56,996 nt of DNA, taken from the NCBI GenBank assembly GCA_023301465.1, contig JALZUQ010000036.1, positions 1 to 56,996 on the forward strand, given 5' to 3'. The notes under the pieces were generated by a model, which saw nothing but the letters and a program-made list of their open reading frames with translations, made no database searches and was not told the DNA's origin. A program made the translations under genes and the position numbers. This document shows, piece by piece, positions 49,321 to 56,996 of the stretch. Every line of letters starts with the position of its first letter. The stretch's first letter is position 1. Origin of the DNA: Oligoflexales bacterium (GTDB lineage Bacteria; Bdellovibrionota_B; Oligoflexia; Oligoflexales; JALZUQ01).

Positions 49321-52300
49321 ATGTTGAAATCACAGAATAAAATTTTAAGAGAGTCTCTAAGGTTGAACATATGGCTTCTAGCAAGCCTCCTTTTAACGAG
49401 CTTAAGCTTTATCAGTGTTCCTTATGCTTATTCACAATCAGCTAATCAACCAAAGAGCAACTCTGAATCTCCTAAAACAAAAAAGCCTAAAATAGATGAG
49501 TCTAAGTTTAACGAGCTTCTTAGAGTGATTTTAGAAATCTCTGAGCTTAAGGACCTTGAATCAGAAGGGCAAATTTCTCACTTCACAATGGTGGAGTTAA
49601 ATGAAGGTTCCGACATTAATCAGAGTCAAGATAATATTTATAAGCTTGATGATGCTCTTTTTCGAGACCCTCGCGGTTTAGGGGCACAGTTTGGAACATT
49701 TTTGGTGAATCCTGAAGAGGTTTTTAAATCATACAAAACTAGCTTTGTCTTGGATGAGAACTCTACAAATAAAAGAACTCATGTAATTGAGCAAGAAACA
49801 GAACGACTTGCTGAGATTATAAAGACATCAAGTGGTCCAGATGATGATGGCGATCGTATGACTCCAGCAAAAAAACAAGAGGCACTAGACGATCTTGCGT
49901 TTAGTATTGATCTTGGAAACTATATCACAGCATCTAAGCATGCACTATTAAGGCAAACATTTTTAGCACCTACAAATCGCCAAAAAAGAGATTCTGCATT
50001 TAGACTGATGATTGGTTTAAATCATCGTGGCAGTTTGAATGTTTATAAAATCGCAAAACACTTTAGGGATAATCTTTATAGCTCATGTGAGAATTGGATG
50101 GTTTGTTATGACGCTTTGTCACACCTGGGAGAAATTGCTAATGCAAGTCCATCGTTAATATTGGATGAGGAATATCAGGCAAGATTAAAATCTTTATTTG
50201 AAGGTCTTAATCAAAAAGATGAATTTGTAGAGAAAATGCTTTTATACCGTTTGTCAATTATTACTGCTCAAGCAAAGTTTATGGAATTGACTGGCTTAAA
50301 TAGTCGTCACAGTCTTGGTCGTGAGCCTACACTAGCGTATCGTTTTATGAATGAAGACGACAAAAAAGAACAGATTGCAGAGAAGTCAGAAGAAATAAGA
50401 AACGCTATTAATAAAGCAATTGGTGAAAACTCATACTATGACGAGATGATTAAAATTCTTAAGCAAAAGTATGTAAGTCATTACCGTATGCAAGAAAGGA
50501 TTAAAAAGAGTAACAATCAAGCTGATCAATTAGAAGCTAAACTAGAAGAAATTACGAATGAACGAACAAGTTCTTTCATGGAATTGGTGAAGTCCACAAA
50601 AGAACAATGGGAAAAAAATGGTAAAAAAGAAAAAATTGAGATTCCATTATCTTCATTTACAGATAGTAAGGTTCTAATATCAGAGAAATTAGAACTCATT
50701 GAGGAAAAAGTAAAGCAAGAGTCTAGGTACACAATCAAAAATGAAATTGAAGCATTAAGAAATCCTAAAATTGAAATTACAGATTACGAGCTTATCGCTC
50801 AAGGAATGCGTGAACACATAGCGTATACAGAAGCAGGAAGACTTAGGCAGGACTTTAGAGGAATGATTCCTGATAAACTTCTCAACTCTGATAATTGGGA
50901 AAATGAAATTGCTAATAAAATTCAAGGGGCTTATACAAAATCCAAACTAGGCAATGATCCGAAGTACATATATGCGGTTGAGGCGATGCCTCATAATATT
51001 GCTCAAGGAATGTTGATGTCAAAGTATAATGTTGAAGGTATGCGTTATTACCTAAAACGTTTGGAGTCTGGTTGGCGACCTTTTCTTGCTGGGGTTCAAA
51101 AGTTAACAGGCTCTATTATTGAAAATAAATATCAGTTAAAAGATGAGCTTTTTAAACAAAAAGGTTTTGAACCATTGTCTATTTTATTCTCTCTTGTTTA
51201 TTATTCAAAGTGGGAATTATCCATGGGTCATCGTGAGGAATGGAAAGAAACGGCACAAAAATTCATGTTGGCATTGGTGGAATCTTCTAAGAAAAATAAA
51301 GATCTACCTTCAGCCAAAGAAATGATGCGTATGATGAACTCTGAATTTTTGGTGAAGCAATTTGGATTGTTAGATCTTAAGTTTGAGCACAATGTGAGTA
51401 TTGTAGAAAAAGCAATAGATAATCTTGGTTTAAATGTTTTTCAAGGTAGTCCAAAGTTTGCAAACGCTGAAATCATGGACATTGAAAAATGGGTAAATGT
51501 CAATATCCCTGGCTTTGAGTCTATTGGTTATCAATATCAAAAAATAGTAGATATTCAGACTAGGTTTTTGATTGAGCTTAATAAAATGCAAGCAATTCAA
51601 GATGAACACAGCCAAGCCGAAGTAGCTGAAAAAGTAATGAAACCTTTAATGCGAAGCTATATGCAAAGGATTTTAGCATTTAATTGTTATGGGTTTTGGA
51701 TGCCTATTGGTGAGCAGGGAAAACTCATTACAAATCCTAAGCATATGCGTACATTTTTATTAGGTTTCGATGAACACCGTAAGTACTTTGAGTCTAAACA
51801 TGATTGGCAAAGATACTACCAGATGCCTGAAGACAAAGACGGTGAAAGGTTTATTGATAAAAAGTTTGATTTAGCACAAGTTTGTGCTGGGTATACTCTA
51901 GAAGAAAAAGCTCAGCTTGAAAAAGATGGAGAGAATCCGCTGATTCATGCAATGAAAAATGTTGAAAACCGTGTGAATGCATATTTAAGCTACCAAGAAG
52001 AAAAGTTATTTCCAAAAACGGACTTATTGATTTGGGCTCAGCAAGCGATGAAAACAAGTGCGATGATGGCTCCTGTACTTGTGGCAATGTCTGGTGTGAG
52101 TCTGGTCAATGGTTTTATTAGGTCTGCAACGACTAATACAGCGATTAAAAGAGTGAGTGGTCGTGCTTTATATAAGTATGCTCTTCAGCATCCAATGAAT
52201 AGGGTGCGTAGAACTCTGAACTTAGTTCCAAAAATAATCGGTCGTTCTGGAGTAAGTAAGAAATTTATGTATAGCTTCTCAGTTAAACCAGCTATGAAAG

Positions 52301-53796
52301 CATCAAAATGGTTCAGTGGTTCATTGTGGAATTTAACTCTCTTTATGGGGCTTAATAATGCAACTATGGCAATGATTCATGATGTGGTGAAGCCTGTGTT
52401 AGAGCCTATGTTTGAGAAATACGGTATTGATCGTGAAATGATGGATGCATGGTTTCCAAGTCATAAATTTATGGATTGGCGTAAGAATGAGTCAACTTGG
52501 CAGAACTTTAACCGTAACTTTGGGGCATCATACGCCACAGGTTTACCACTCTTCATGGCAATTCCATTGTTTCATGGACTAGCCTTAAGGCAAATTCATT
52601 ATCGTAATATTTGGGGACGTGCTTCAACAACTTGGTATGGAGTTGGTTTGAGCAGACGTTCTATCTTTTATTCACAGCTCAAAAAAATGAAGCTTCACAA
52701 TACAGGTCTTTTGGCAAAATTAGATGTGAATTTTGGTCGTCACCCAAACTTAGTTGGATTGCTAGAGGCACAGATTACTCATAAAGGTTTTTTGAGGCTT
52801 CCAAGAAATGGAACGGCTTTGGAGTTTAACCCAATCGGTCTGTCAACTACAGAGCATGTTGCTTATGCATCACTACCTGCTGCATATCAGTTCGGTTTGT
52901 TTTTAGGGACGCCATATGCATATCGTGCAGCAATGAAAAATGGCTCAATCACCAAAGAGAAGTTACGTGCTTTTTTTGCGGGTGAAGCAATTGACGAATC
53001 TAACTTTTTAGATATTGATGTTTTTCAAGGTTGGAATGTATTTTGGAAAAAAGATGTCATTCAATCGGCTACTTTCACAGGTGTTTTTAGTTTGATGGGA
53101 ATGTATAGCCATAGATCTACGAGAAGAACTCAAGTGAAAAACATCATTTCTGGTGAAAGAATCAAGAATAATAATGGTCAAGACCAAAGATTGTTAGAAC
53201 ACTATAGACGTGGTGGAAGTGACCCTTTTAAAGTATTAAAATTAAAAAAACCTAAGCCAAAAGCAGTGAAAAAAGCAGTTAAAGAAAATACAAGTATTTA
53301 TTCTGAAACTCAAATTGAAAATGCTCTTTATGCTGCTTCGAGCACTTCTAAGATTTCTACGTCTCAGCTTAATAAAATGGCCGATATTATGAGAAGTCCA
53401 GCCAAGCTACAAGAGTATATGACGAAAGCAAATCAGCCATCATCTATATATGAGTTGTTTGGTTTGGAAAAGCCAACTCTTAATGAGTTAGTAAAAGCAG
53501 AAAATGGTAAAATGGATTTATTTGAAGGGAAATTTAAAGAGAAGTCTTTAAATGATCGTCTTGCAGATGCCTTAGCATACCCACAATTTTCTTTTACAAA
53601 TAAAACGATAGAAATGTTTTTTAATCACTTAAGAACTGCAACACCCATCAGAGCAGCCGGTACAAAAATTGAAATGCCACTTTATCAATATCATATGGGA
53701 TATAAATTACAAAAAAGTGTTAGGCCAGTAGGTTGGTCTATGGGTAGGCATATTCGAAGAGTAGAAAAAATGGGATCTAGAATCAATCAGTATTAA
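49321..53796 (+). CDS. very large exported protein of unknown function
   Basis: 1491 aa. Signal peptide of about 38 residues (LLASLLLTSLSF, AYS-QSA) is followed by a Ser/Pro/Lys-rich linker. Residues 50-900 are helical and charged, with a coiled-coil stretch about 375-450 (rich in Lys/Glu/Gln). Residues 900-1270 contain about five hydrophobic segments (APVLVAMSGVSLVNGFI, WNLTLFMGLNN, GLPLFMAIPLFHGLAL, AAYQFGLFLGTPYAY, TFTGVFSLMGMY), which suggests insertion in a membrane. The C-terminal part has a basic KPKPKAVKKAVK stretch. No catalytic motif recognised. A DUF167 gene follows. An exported AAA+ gene is encoded convergently. The SD is poor (GGTGGG 11 nt upstream). Confidence 0.7.
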   Translation: MLKSQNKILRESLRLNIWLLASLLLTSLSFISVPYAYSQSANQPKSNSESPKTKKPKIDESKFNELLRVILEISELKDLESEGQISHFTMVELNEGSDINQSQDNIYKLDDALFRDPRGLGAQFGTFLVNPEEVFKSYKTSFVLDENSTNKRTHVIEQETERLAEIIKTSSGPDDDGDRMTPAKKQEALDDLAFSIDLGNYITASKHALLRQTFLAPTNRQKRDSAFRLMIGLNHRGSLNVYKIAKHFRDNLYSSCENWMVCYDALSHLGEIANASPSLILDEEYQARLKSLFEGLNQKDEFVEKMLLYRLSIITAQAKFMELTGLNSRHSLGREPTLAYRFMNEDDKKEQIAEKSEEIRNAINKAIGENSYYDEMIKILKQKYVSHYRMQERIKKSNNQADQLEAKLEEITNERTSSFMELVKSTKEQWEKNGKKEKIEIPLSSFTDSKVLISEKLELIEEKVKQESRYTIKNEIEALRNPKIEITDYELIAQGMREHIAYTEAGRLRQDFRGMIPDKLLNSDNWENEIANKIQGAYTKSKLGNDPKYIYAVEAMPHNIAQGMLMSKYNVEGMRYYLKRLESGWRPFLAGVQKLTGSIIENKYQLKDELFKQKGFEPLSILFSLVYYSKWELSMGHREEWKETAQKFMLALVESSKKNKDLPSAKEMMRMMNSEFLVKQFGLLDLKFEHNVSIVEKAIDNLGLNVFQGSPKFANAEIMDIEKWVNVNIPGFESIGYQYQKIVDIQTRFLIELNKMQAIQDEHSQAEVAEKVMKPLMRSYMQRILAFNCYGFWMPIGEQGKLITNPKHMRTFLLGFDEHRKYFESKHDWQRYYQMPEDKDGERFIDKKFDLAQVCAGYTLEEKAQLEKDGENPLIHAMKNVENRVNAYLSYQEEKLFPKTDLLIWAQQAMKTSAMMAPVLVAMSGVSLVNGFIRSATTNTAIKRVSGRALYKYALQHPMNRVRRTLNLVPKIIGRSGVSKKFMYSFSVKPAMKASKWFSGSLWNLTLFMGLNNATMAMIHDVVKPVLEPMFEKYGIDREMMDAWFPSHKFMDWRKNESTWQNFNRNFGASYATGLPLFMAIPLFHGLALRQIHYRNIWGRASTTWYGVGLSRRSIFYSQLKKMKLHNTGLLAKLDVNFGRHPNLVGLLEAQITHKGFLRLPRNGTALEFNPIGLSTTEHVAYASLPAAYQFGLFLGTPYAYRAAMKNGSITKEKLRAFFAGEAIDESNFLDIDVFQGWNVFWKKDVIQSATFTGVFSLMGMYSHRSTRRTQVKNIISGERIKNNNGQDQRLLEHYRRGGSDPFKVLKLKKPKPKAVKKAVKENTSIYSETQIENALYAASSTSKISTSQLNKMADIMRSPAKLQEYMTKANQPSSIYELFGLEKPTLNELVKAENGKMDLFEGKFKEKSLNDRLADALAYPQFSFTNKTIEMFFNHLRTATPIRAAGTKIEMPLYQYHMGYKLQKSVRPVGWSMGRHIRRVEKMGSRINQY

Positions 53797-54103: not shown

Positions 54104-54142
54104 AAAAGAGCGCACCCCTTCCTTAAGAGGTGCTCTTTTTTT
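54104..54142 (+). terminator. bidirectional terminator between convergent genes
   Basis: Arms AAAAGAGCGCACC (54104-54116) and GGTGCTCTTTT (54129-54139), pairing with a 2-nt bulge. Flanking T and A runs serve the rightward DUF167 gene and the leftward AAA+ gene. Confidence 0.85.
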
Positions 54143-56744
54143 ATTTTCCTAAGCTGCACGCAGTTTCACGCATATAGATTTCAATTGAATCAGAGTCGAC
54201 TTCTAGGCTAGCCATATCTTCTATTTGACCTCTGATATCTTCAAACTCATTATCTAAAGAAGCTTTGTCAACGATGGCTTTGTTTGGGTCATCTATTAAA
54301 CTCTTGTTTTCTAAGTCGTCTGTATCGGCTTTAACTTGTTTGATGTTAGGTTTGTTTATATCTAAGTAAGTCTCGGTGTACTTTTTTCTTGTTTCGGAGC
54401 TACCAAGTAAGGCTAGTGCTTTTTGGCTTAAGATCTTATTTGTCACTAAATTTTCAATATACTTAGTAATTTGTGACTCTCTAGACTCAACAGTTCTTTC
54501 TTGGAGTGTTAAAGTATTTCTGTTGAAAGTATGTTCATTTAAAAGCTCTTTAGTACTTGTGCTAATATCACCTTCCAAAATAAAATGTGCAGATAGACCC
54601 GGAAAATAAATTTTCCGTGCACCTTTTTCATCATGAATATACCCCTGTGACATCCATTTCATCACTTCTTGTTGATCAATTGCTGACAGCAATTGAAAAC
54701 CATTAAATTGAAGAATTCCTACGGCTCCTCCATTCTTACTGTCTCCAACAAATTTAATGATTTCTTGTTTAATATAATCTAAGTTTGATCTACCTGACAC
54801 ATTAACTTTAAGTACGTTTCTACCTAAAATATCAGCCACTAATTGCGAGTGTTCAATTTGGCCTGAGCCTTTCTCTCCTTGAAAAACAGATAGTTTTGCT
54901 CTGTAATTGTTAGTGTTAACTCCTGTGATAACATTCACCGCAATAGATGTAAGCTTTGTTGATAAATCTGCTTTTAAAGAATCAGAGGTGCCTTCAAAAC
55001 CAGCGATTTTTTCAGATACTCTTTGTTGGAGGTTTTTAGCTTCGAAAATAATGCCTTTCGTTCCAAAGTAGTTTGACAGAAATGATCTAGCAGTGTTGAT
55101 GTCAACAACTTCTCCTTTAGGACTATCGAAGAACTTCGTTTGACTTTGAAAAGTACCCATTAAGTCTCTAGGCCCACGTACGACACCTGCATTAGGATCC
55201 ATTACCCTTGATTGTTTGAGTATTTCAGCAGCAATTTTTTCGGGCTCTATTATGGTAACGCCTTTGTCTCTTAGTTTAATTAGGTCGTTCTCAATAACCT
55301 TTACAATAATATCGTCACTAATGGGTTCAATATCAAAAAGGCTAAACCGATCTACAAGTGCTTCATTTGGCCAAATATATTGATAAAATTCCTCAGTAGT
55401 GGTTGCTGCAATTAGCTTGACTCTACCAGCACTCATGGCGTTTTTTAATTGTTCAAAAATTCCATCACTTACACCGTTTTCACCTTTGTCCATTAATTTA
55501 TGGACTTCATCAGTGTGGAATACAATCGGTCTGTTGCCAGTATTTGCTTTTTTAAGGATTGCTGCAATTCGAGTTTCAAGCTGACCTCTATATGAAGTGT
55601 TTGATTTTAAATTAACACTATCTAAAATGCGTAGGTCAATCTTCTCTAAGTCATTAAATATTCTTTGTTTAAGTTCATCGACTTGAGTTTGAGTAAAATC
55701 TTTAATATAGGTTTTATCTTCTAAGCTCTTATGAAAAAGATGATCGGAGATTTCATTGGGGAACTTTGCTCTAGCCAACATAGCCATGGTATTATCAGAG
55801 GTGAAGCTTTTACCTGCACCTTTTAATGCCCTCAATAGAATACTTTTACCATCAAGTTTTACCCCGCCTAATCCTTCAAAGCTTAGAGAAAAAGCATAGA
55901 CGATTCTTCTTGCAGATTGAGGATCTACTTTGTCAAATTCATTGAAGAAAGGGCTGTCTCTAAAGTGAACTCTTGCGTCTGGTACAGCCTGTTCGATAAT
56001 AGCTTCACTGTCGGGGTTAATGGTTTGAAGATCTGAGTAATTCAGTGCTCCACCTTCTGCGTTCTCATTTGCTGCTAAAGTTTTTGATGCTTCTTCGACA
56101 GACTCTTTATTATAGTTTGATACATAGTATTCATCTCCATAAGCTTGATTCAATTCCGCATTATTTGCGTTTGCTCTCTTATTTTCGGCAATATTGACAG
56201 CTTTCATACCAAAACTCTCTTTTAGTATGTCGATGTGTTTTCTGTGTGCTCCATATATGCTCATGCCAACAGGTAGTTTTGAGTTTTGCGATTTTTGTCG
56301 TATCATGTTTTTTAGGTCTTCTAGAATGACTGTCTTTTCAAAACGTTTTAAATCTAAGTCGACACCTACATCATGGATTTTGATGAGTGCATCATTGACT
56401 ACTTCATATAGTATGTAACCCACGACTTTATTTGTTTCTGAGTCTCTCACTGCTAGAGTTTCTAGCTTCTTCTTTATAAAAGCATCCGTCAGTTGCTCTA
56501 CTGTGTACCAGCGATTATATTGATTTTGAATTTTTTGGATAATTTCAACTTGTGCTTCAATAAAGGGGACTCGAAGATCTGGGTTTAATTGGTTGGTTTC
56601 AGGGTCTTCCGTTACAGCAGTGTCGGTGGTTACGTATTTTTTGGGCGTTGTTACGTCATCTTTAATACCTGAAGTGGGGGTTCTCAAGCGACAGCCACTG
56701 ATGAGTATGAAAAAAGTCATGGCAAAAGTTAACTTAGTCAGCAC
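54141..56744 (-). CDS. lipoprotein ClpB-like AAA+ ATPase with GNAT-like N-terminal domain
   Basis: 867 aa. GTG 56744 has GGAGG 6 nt upstream. Signal peptide with lipobox ISGC, lipid Cys at 18 followed by Arg, which predicts the outer membrane. Residues about 92-185 resemble a GNAT fold but lack the acetyl-CoA G-x-G loop. Residues 295-500 match ClpB/ClpC D1: deviant Walker A ALKGAGKS (306-313), SYRGQLETR (384-392), Walker B D412-E413 in FHTDEVH, sensor ATT and Arg466 in VDRF. A second region about 565-740 looks like D2 with a broken Walker A (GEKGSGQ at 623-629). An AAA+ protein exported this way is unusual. The fold call is by eye. Confidence 0.7.
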   Translation of the reverse strand: MLTKLTFAMTFFILISGCRLRTPTSGIKDDVTTPKKYVTTDTAVTEDPETNQLNPDLRVPFIEAQVEIIQKIQNQYNRWYTVEQLTDAFIKKKLETLAVRDSETNKVVGYILYEVVNDALIKIHDVGVDLDLKRFEKTVILEDLKNMIRQKSQNSKLPVGMSIYGAHRKHIDILKESFGMKAVNIAENKRANANNAELNQAYGDEYYVSNYNKESVEEASKTLAANENAEGGALNYSDLQTINPDSEAIIEQAVPDARVHFRDSPFFNEFDKVDPQSARRIVYAFSLSFEGLGGVKLDGKSILLRALKGAGKSFTSDNTMAMLARAKFPNEISDHLFHKSLEDKTYIKDFTQTQVDELKQRIFNDLEKIDLRILDSVNLKSNTSYRGQLETRIAAILKKANTGNRPIVFHTDEVHKLMDKGENGVSDGIFEQLKNAMSAGRVKLIAATTTEEFYQYIWPNEALVDRFSLFDIEPISDDIIVKVIENDLIKLRDKGVTIIEPEKIAAEILKQSRVMDPNAGVVRGPRDLMGTFQSQTKFFDSPKGEVVDINTARSFLSNYFGTKGIIFEAKNLQQRVSEKIAGFEGTSDSLKADLSTKLTSIAVNVITGVNTNNYRAKLSVFQGEKGSGQIEHSQLVADILGRNVLKVNVSGRSNLDYIKQEIIKFVGDSKNGGAVGILQFNGFQLLSAIDQQEVMKWMSQGYIHDEKGARKIYFPGLSAHFILEGDISTSTKELLNEHTFNRNTLTLQERTVESRESQITKYIENLVTNKILSQKALALLGSSETRKKYTETYLDINKPNIKQVKADTDDLENKSLIDDPNKAIVDKASLDNEFEDIRGQIEDMASLEVDSDSIEIYMRETACSLGK

Positions 56745-56805
56745 AAAAAACCTCCAGAAAAACCTTGAAATTATAGAAAATTAGTACGATTTAGCACTAA
56801 GATTA

Positions 56806-56996
56806 TTATAAGCTATAAAAGGTCTTGATTGGTAATGACGTGTTTTGGGGTTTGATATATTTGTTTAAAATAACTCTATATTTCAGGTACTTATAAAGTT
56901 GTTTGGTTGTTTGGTTGTTTGGTTGTTTGGTTGTTTGGTTGTTTGGTTGTTTGGTTGTTTGGTTGTTTGGTTGTTTGGTTGTTTGGTTGTTTGGTT
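56806..56996 (-). other. open frame entering from the right edge through the tandem repeat
   Basis: A minus-strand frame is open from the window edge through the 8-bp repeat and ends with TAA at 56806-56808. The repeat would encode a cycle of Asn, Gln, Thr, Lys and Pro, followed by a 31-codon tail. The low complexity makes coding status uncertain. Confidence 0.25.
56901..56996 (+). repeat. 8-bp tandem repeat, 12 copies to the window edge
   Basis: GTTTGGTT is repeated 12 times without error from 56901 to 56996 and continues past the edge. The unit length is not a multiple of 3, so copy changes would shift any frame. It is stop-free in all frames on both strands. Confidence 0.97.

What the first reader, a model, noticed from the sequence alone, without database searches (positions are those of the whole stretch)
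54141..56744. Exported lipoprotein carrying a ClpB-like AAA+ ATPase and a GNAT-like domain
The N-terminus has a clean signal peptide with lipobox ISGC, and a strong SD supports the start. The body has ClpB D1 features (SYRGQLETR, FHTDEVH, ATT, VDRF) and a D2-like region with a broken Walker A. AAA+ unfoldases normally act in the cytosol because ATP is scarce in the periplasm. Options: the protein is delivered into another cell (for a predatory or intracellular lifestyle), uses ATP exported by other means, or has lost hydrolysis and serves as a scaffold. The Walker A of D1 is also off-consensus (Ala in place of the first Gly). The GNAT-like part lacks the acetyl-CoA loop. I know of no described protein with this architecture.
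Basis: partly seen in the sequence, partly recalled or inferred. Interest (0 to 1): 0.78.

Follow-up and report, generated by a model that had tools for sequence, protein, structure and literature searches.

The report
Exported Clp-type AAA+ ATPase lipoprotein
This bacterial gene encodes a protein built around the ATP-driven motor domain of the Clp/Hsp100 unfolding machines but carrying an export signal and a lipid anchor, and the same genome holds at least three more exported Clp-like proteins, which is surprising because ATP is thought to be absent outside the cytoplasm.

Summary
The 867-aa gene (54141-56744, minus strand) has one well-supported start (GGAGG Shine-Dalgarno) and a textbook lipoprotein signal (ISGC). 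It carries a Clp/Hsp100 D1 AAA domain (PDB E=1e-13; Pfam AAA above cut-off). Walker A Lys, Walker B DE, sensor-1, pore-loop Tyr and one of two Arg fingers are intact; the first Gly of Walker A is Ala. The second AAA region is only weakly supported and has lost both Walker motifs. The GNAT claim has no sequence support.

No orthologue was found in any genome searched. The window gene is not alone, though. The same genome has three other signal-peptide-bearing Clp-like proteins. One (contig C45) belongs to a conserved CUB-Clp family: eight full-length members in seven genomes of two phyla, 41-44% identical, all with signal peptides, an invariant D2 ATPase site and usually an adjacent conserved membrane gene. 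Two more sit in an operon with an exported vWA protein and an exported trypsin-like protease.

Best reading: an extracytoplasmic, torsin/CLPB-like AAA+ remodelling set that still binds, and probably hydrolyses, nucleotide. Location, D1 and the family pattern are strong; activity, ATP source and this gene's own function are inferred.

The parts
54141..56744 (-). Exported Clp-type AAA+ lipoprotein, 867 aa (P0001)
56751..56755 (-). Shine-Dalgarno GGAGG, 6 nt before the GTG start
56691..56744 (-). Signal peptide with lipobox ISGC (residues 1-18, Cys18 = lipidation site)
   Evidence: only 2 Cys in the protein (18, 863)
56583..56690 (-). T/P/D-rich tether after Cys18 (residues 19-54)
   Evidence: sequence
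56175..56582 (-). N-terminal region called GNAT-like (residues 55-190); fold unassigned
   Evidence: no Pfam or PDB match at E<=10 that supports GNAT
55125..55856 (-). AAA+ domain of Clp D1 type (residues 297-540)
55806..55829 (-). D1 Walker A ALKGAGKS (306-313; Ala for the first Gly)
55581..55598 (-). D1 pore loop 1 TSYRGQ (383-388)
   Evidence: alignment A1
55506..55526 (-). D1 Walker B IVFHTDE (407-413)
   Evidence: alignment A1
55398..55409 (-). D1 sensor 1 AATT (446-449)
   Evidence: alignment A1
55344..55361 (-). D1 arginine-finger region ALVDRF (462-467; canonical ALxRRF)
   Evidence: alignment A1
54540..54947 (-). Degenerate D2-like region (residues 600-735): GEKGSGQI for Walker A, GILQFN for Walker B; lacks the D2 pore-loop segment
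   Evidence: tentative: hhalign P=0.02; spacing 25/32 as in the exported family against 28/44 in canonical D2
54112..54133 (-). Intrinsic-terminator-like hairpin between this gene and the convergent gene
   Evidence: consensus scan only

Best explanation
The gene encodes an envelope-anchored AAA+ protein. It is exported by a type II signal peptide, lipidated at Cys18, and tethered (probably to the outer membrane, as Arg follows the Cys) by a ~36-residue linker. Its D1 keeps the residues needed to bind and hydrolyse ATP and a substrate-gripping pore loop; its second AAA region is probably a dead, short D2 used for assembly. It is one member of a set of exported Clp-like proteins in this genome and related lineages. 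It most likely works like torsins or mitochondrial CLPB: a ring or partial ring that uses nucleotide present outside the cytoplasm (from a prey or host cell, lysed neighbours, or an unidentified exporter) to remodel or unfold envelope or substrate proteins. In other members the products are probably handed to exported serine proteases. Shown from sequence: export signal, D1 homology and motifs, other exported members, conserved ATPase site in one family, protease and vWA neighbours. Inferred: outer-membrane sorting, ring assembly, ATP use, substrate remodelling, coupling to proteases.
For: Signal, lipobox and SD. D1 homology and motifs. Three other exported Clp-like proteins in the same genome: C45 P0002 (PF07724 2.5e-18; ClpB D2 1.7e-27), C24 P0003 (ClpC 2.5e-30) and C24 P0004 (Torsin family above cut-off, 28.9 vs 27). 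CUB-Clp family in two phyla, all with signal peptides and invariant GPTGTGKS / FEEID / FLNRF / GARPMER. A signal-peptide scan finds strong hydrophobic N-termini (score >=28) in 11/11 exported proteins; among 39 Clp hits used as controls only one scored above 21, and that one (G011) is itself an exported ankyrin-Clp. CUB, an extracellular domain type, passes Pfam's cut-off in one member (24.6 vs 21.4). Neighbouring genes: trypsin, subtilase, vWA, conserved membrane gene adjacent in 6 of 8 loci.
Against: No orthologue of the window gene was found, so none of its own residues can be shown to be under selection. The periplasm is held to lack ATP. One Arg finger and the first Walker A Gly are changed. 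The second AAA region is weakly supported. The window protein is not demonstrably closer to the exported CUB-Clp family than to canonical Clps: its D1 scores 104.6 against canonical D1 and 28.8 against exported D1. No protease or vWA gene lies beside it within the contig, which ends 252 bp upstream of the start codon.
Confidence: 0.5

Rival explanations
1. Exported pseudo-ATPase: the AAA fold is kept as an oligomerising scaffold or nucleotide-gated holdase in the envelope without hydrolysis.
For: D2 motifs lost, first Arg finger lost, Walker A off-consensus; ATP thought to be absent from the periplasm; each of P0001 and the CUB-Clp proteins has one dead AAA domain.
Against: D1 keeps Lys, DE, sensor-1 Thr, pore-loop Tyr and one Arg. 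In the related CUB-Clp family the D2 ATPase site is invariant at ~42% identity across two phyla, which is not what a plain scaffold needs.
Confidence: 0.27
2. Delivered or exposed to another cell: the lipoprotein faces, or is released into, a prey or host cytosol and uses that cell's ATP.
For: Best named DnaE relatives include Bdellovibrio-like and Oligoflexia genomes, lineages with predatory members; ankyrin-Clp and CUB modules look suited to interaction outside the cell.
Against: Lifestyle of this organism unknown; no delivery system examined; the ATP/ADP-carrier-like protein is a weak, short match that scores better as a general MFS transporter.
Confidence: 0.15
3. Decaying or recently captured Clp fragment with no current function.
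For: No orthologue found in 58 own-phylum or 369 sister-phylum genomes; degenerate second domain.
Against: 867-codon intact frame, good SD, retained catalytic residues, composition typical of the window (GC 0.363, GC3 0.29).
Confidence: 0.05
4. Cytosolic Clp homologue with a misannotated start.
For: None found beyond ATP availability.
Against: The only start with an SD gives the lipobox; L20 directly follows Cys18 without an SD, and the next starts are V99/V108. Other Clp-like proteins of the genome also carry signals.
Confidence: 0.03

Closest known systems
ClpB/ClpA/ClpC/ClpV (Hsp100) D1
   Same: D1 fold and sequence, pore loop SYRG, Walker B DE, sensor ATT
   Different: Signal peptide and lipid anchor; no Clp N-domain and no ClpB M-domain detected; second AAA region dead; far below every Clp equivalog cut-off (58.6 vs 884.95 for ClpV)
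Torsins (ER lumen and nuclear envelope, Clp/Hsp100-related)
   Same: Clp-derived AAA+ in a non-cytosolic compartment; torsins also lack pore loops and depend on membrane cofactors (PMC7175109). P0004 of this genome passes Pfam's Torsin cut-off
   Different: Torsins have one AAA domain and no Arg finger; the window protein resembles D1, not the torsin/D2 type
Mitochondrial CLPB/SKD3 (intermembrane space; PMC7343390, PMC9934407)
   Same: Clp-type AAA+ in a compartment comparable to the periplasm; an exported ankyrin-Clp occurs in G011 of the same order
   Different: SKD3 is ankyrin plus a single D2-type domain; P0001 has no ankyrin; P0002 has CUB instead
CUB-Clp family found here (P0002 and relatives)
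   Same: Exported, two Clp-like domains, one dead; Walker A to Walker B spacing of the short D2 (25 + 32) matches P0001
   Different: In CUB-Clp D1 is dead and D2 live, the reverse of P0001; no sequence-level proof of common descent

Membership tests
Clp/Hsp100 AAA+ (double-ring unfoldases) | D1 AAA module with Walker A/B, sensor 1, Arg finger and pore loop | tested here: met
   first Walker A Gly to Ala, one of two Arg fingers lost
Clp/Hsp100 AAA+ (double-ring unfoldases) | Functional D2 AAA module | tested here: not met
   Walker A K to Q, Walker B DE to FN; domain assignment itself weak
Clp/Hsp100 AAA+ (double-ring unfoldases) | Score above an equivalog cut-off (ClpA/B/V) | tested here: not met
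   best 58.6 bits against 884.95
Clp/Hsp100 AAA+ (double-ring unfoldases) | ATP hydrolysis and hexamer formation | not testable with these tools
   needs purified protein
Bacterial lipoprotein (SPase II substrate) | n-region, h-region and lipobox Cys behind a valid start | tested here: met
   (motif rules; SignalP not available)
GNAT acetyltransferase | Detectable GNAT profile match and acetyl-CoA loop (Q/RxxGxG/A) | tested here: not met
   no match at E<=10; loop absent from the sequence. The fold itself is not excluded
Torsin | Match to the Torsin profile (PF06309) | tested here: not met
   absent for P0001; met by P0004 of the same genome
CUB-Clp family | Dead D1 + CUB insert + live short D2 | tested here: not met
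   P0001 has live D1, no CUB hit, dead D2-like region

The most novel reading that the evidence does not exclude
Some bacteria run an extracytoplasmic set of Clp/Hsp100-type AAA+ machines: lipoprotein and periplasmic unfoldases, some encoded beside exported serine proteases and a vWA protein. They are powered by nucleotide outside the cytoplasm and the window gene is one of them. This would be a bacterial counterpart of torsins and mitochondrial CLPB, and an exception to the rule that envelope protein quality control is ATP-independent.
Probability: 0.42. Interest if true: 0.93.

Novelty: new variant of a known kind. Interest (0 to 1): 0.8.

Why it matters
Envelope chaperones and proteases of Gram-negative bacteria are described as ATP-independent because the periplasm is held to lack ATP. 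A conserved family of exported Clp-type proteins with an invariant ATPase site in two phyla challenges that directly and testably. It implies either a nucleotide supply outside the inner membrane, use of a prey or host cell's ATP, or a nucleotide-independent job that still needs an intact P-loop. It may also offer a bacterial parallel, possibly a relative, of the torsins and mitochondrial CLPB, whose origins and modes of action are debated.

Tried and rejected
Orthologues of the window gene: own phylum (58 genomes), 369 genomes of the Bacteriovoracaceae-side phylum, plasmids, phages, IMG/VR, and an exact-pattern scan of GTDB species genomes gave only generic Clp hits or nothing. The wide searches at E<=1e-12 and 1e-13 would miss very divergent orthologues. 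Single-sequence AlphaFold failed (pLDDT 34). A model with 27 viral Clp sequences reached about 75-82 over part of D1 only, and its Foldseek match to ClpA is not independent, because the alignment was seeded with Clps. The D2-like region scores no better against the exported D2 profile than against the canonical one. GNAT rejected as unsupported. L119/L008 (D1 proteins with other N-termini) rejected as relatives of the window gene. The TLC ATP/ADP carrier match in the genome was rejected as evidence for ATP exchange. L219 (exported-type N-terminus, TM core, AAA beside an MscS-like gene) was set aside as an ordinary inner-membrane protein with a probably cytosolic AAA domain.

Full report
WHAT IS THERE. 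The reading frame is exactly as reported: 867 codons, minus strand 56744 to 54141, GTG start. The start has GGAGG 6 nt upstream. Other in-frame starts within the first 110 codons are M9 (inside the signal), L20 (just after the lipobox Cys), V99 and V108, none with such a site. The N-terminus MLTKLTFAMTFFILISGC has a Lys in the n-region, an uncharged hydrophobic core and lipobox ISGC. By the same rule none of the other 47 ORFs of at least 100 aa in the window qualifies. The mature protein begins with a T/P/D-rich tether and holds only one more Cys (863). Export as a lipoprotein is therefore the well-supported reading, although SignalP was not available.

DOMAINS. Residues ~297-540 are an AAA+ domain of the Clp D1 type. 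PDB hits are PfHsp101 1.3e-13 and ClpB/ClpA/ClpC about 1e-8. Pfam AAA is above its cut-off, NCBIfam ClpV 3.6e-16, and hhalign against 39 Clp hits from related genomes gives P=1e-14. Alignment A1 shows ALKGAGKS (A306 for the first Gly), Walker B D412-E413, AATT, pore loop SYRG, and ALVDRF (R466 kept, the other Arg finger is Asp). DEAD-box helicases use AxxGxGKT (established knowledge), so the Ala need not abolish ATP binding. Residues ~600-735 line up with Clp D2 in the right order, with GEKGSGQI for Walker A and ILQFN for Walker B, but the signal is weak: hhalign P=0.02, 4/200 shuffles and 0/72 real-protein segments score as high; a combined profile gave 7/200. The N-terminal GNAT claim found no support. 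AlphaFold with one sequence failed; with a Clp-seeded alignment only part of D1 was moderately confident, so its match to ClpA is not independent.

THE WINDOW GENE HAS NO FOUND ORTHOLOGUE. Its own phylum as held (58 genomes, one class), 369 genomes of a second phylum, phages, plasmids and viral contigs gave only ordinary Clp hits or nothing. The 1491-aa exported neighbour (49321-53796) has none in 54 genomes either. The window is a whole contig (C36) of a 2.77-Mb draft genome. The best named DnaE relatives are an uncultured proteobacterium, Deltaproteobacteria, a Bacteriovoracaceae MAG and Bdellovibrio-type MAGs, so an Oligoflexia/Bdellovibrio-side lineage is inferred, not proven.

IT IS NOT ALONE. 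A scan of its own genome for AAA domains, followed by a look at N-termini, uncovered other exported AAA proteins. (a) P0002 on contig C45 (L234:12236-14479): signal peptide, degenerate Clp D1, a CUB-like insert, and an intact D2 (PF07724 2.5e-18, ClpB_D2-small; ClpB D2 in PDB 1.7e-27; torsin 2e-4). (b) On contig C24 an apparent operon of five same-strand genes, all with signal-type N-termini: a 537-aa protein; P0004 (955 aa, AAA_2 and Torsin above cut-off); a vWA protein; P0003 (855 aa, dead D1 and live D2 with the GAPPGFVG pore loop, ClpC 2.5e-30); and a trypsin-family protease. Canonical ClpA/ClpB-like genes are also present in the genome (L002, L003). (c) In another genome of the order (G011), a signal peptide, ankyrin repeats, a live D1 and, in a shifted frame, a D2. 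That gene is frame-broken in the draft; it was not mended.

THE CUB-CLP FAMILY IS CONSERVED. P0002 has an orthologue in G040, a different family of the order (43% identity, E=1e-184). A profile of its dead D1 plus insert found clear orthologues in 6 of 369 genomes of the other phylum (E 1e-59 to 1e-110). The eight full-length proteins (seven genomes) are 41-44% identical to P0002. All have signal-type N-termini, one of them (G119a, ILLLLIVLAISISC) probably a lipoprotein. D2 keeps GPTGTGKS, YLFEEIDKA, sensor-1 T-N, FLNRF and GARPMER without exception, while D1 has lost its Walker motifs but keeps a Y/F-V-G pore loop. CUB scores 24.6 bits (cut-off 21.4) in G119a and 21.2 for the isolated G040 segment. 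A small membrane protein gene sits next to it, 2-193 bp away, 41-46% identical to the P0002 neighbour, in 6 of 8 loci. Exported proteases lie beside three members: a subtilase 15 bp downstream (G119a), a subtilase upstream (G119b), a trypsin-like gene upstream (G040). In a motif control 11/11 exported proteins show a strong hydrophobic N-terminus (score >=28). Five of 39 Clp hits used as controls flagged at all: four weakly (<=21) and the fifth is the G011 ankyrin-Clp.

IS THE WINDOW GENE ONE OF THIS SET? By location and Clp ancestry, yes. By descent, unproven. Its D1 is nearer canonical Clps than the degenerate exported D1 (hhalign 104.6 vs 28.8). One structural hint links them: canonical D2 has 28 and 44 residues between Walker A, the next strand and Walker B, because it holds a pore loop. 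The CUB-Clp family has 25 and 32 (script values of 18/39 in four members come from an earlier D-M match; the sum, 57, is the same), and P0001 has 25 and 32; G011 has 28 and 32, P0004 27 and 30. This comparison was made after seeing the sequences and is weak evidence.

HOW IT PROBABLY WORKS. An envelope lipoprotein whose D1 can bind, and probably hydrolyse, ATP, gripping substrate through SYRG, with the second domain as a structural ring. P0001 (D1 live, D2 dead) and P0002 (reverse) could even co-assemble; this is untested. The ATP source is the open question: prey or host ATP, lysis, or an exporter. The only ATP/ADP-carrier-like gene found is a weak, short MFS-type match, so it says nothing for this. 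Eukaryotic precedents for Clp-type AAA+ outside the cytosol are torsins (PMC7175109: the only AAA+ in the ER/nuclear envelope, lacking Arg finger and pore loops) and CLPB/SKD3 in the mitochondrial intermembrane space (PMC7343390; PMC9934407).

NOVELTY. Searches of the held literature for periplasmic, secreted or extracytoplasmic AAA+/Clp proteins returned nothing that describes such a protein in bacteria; that library is incomplete and absence there is not proof. I rate it a new variant of a known kind: the engine is Clp, the compartment and accessory domains are new.

LIMITS.

Noticed in passing
L283:6496-15261 (own genome, contig C24): Operon of exported proteins: 537 aa unknown, torsin-like AAA (P0004), vWA, Clp-like AAA with live D2 (P0003), trypsin-like protease. 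Looks like a candidate extracytoplasmic AAA+ protease system.
   Followed up: partly
L234:11538-14479 (own genome, contig C45) and loci L256, L277-L282: Conserved CUB-Clp family of exported proteins with an adjacent small membrane protein gene, in two phyla.
   Followed up: partly
L027:226-3034 (genome G011): Signal peptide + ankyrin repeats + Clp D1/D2, recalling mitochondrial CLPB/SKD3; frame broken between D1 and D2 in the draft assembly.
   Followed up: partly
window 56898-56996: 12.4 perfect copies of the 8-bp unit GTTGTTTG at the contig end, 154 bp upstream of the start codon; could be a phase-variable repeat or just the place where assembly broke.
   Followed up: no
window 49321-53796: 1491-aa orphan protein with a signal peptide and a hydrophobic C-terminal third, convergent with the AAA gene, no relatives in 54 genomes.
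   Followed up: partly
L234:4333-7543: 803-aa protein with signal-type N-terminus, TM core and AAA_22 domain directly followed by a MscS-like membrane protein; possible ATPase-gated channel.
   Followed up: no
L119:1264-3171 and L008:49-2046: A separate Clp-D1-only protein family in this order and in the second phylum, next to an actin/ParM-like or coiled-coil gene.
   Followed up: no
L233:121-1377 (own genome, contig C3): 418-aa transporter matching the TLC ATP/ADP carrier family above Pfam cut-off but better as a general MFS protein; absent from 14 control genomes.
   Followed up: partly
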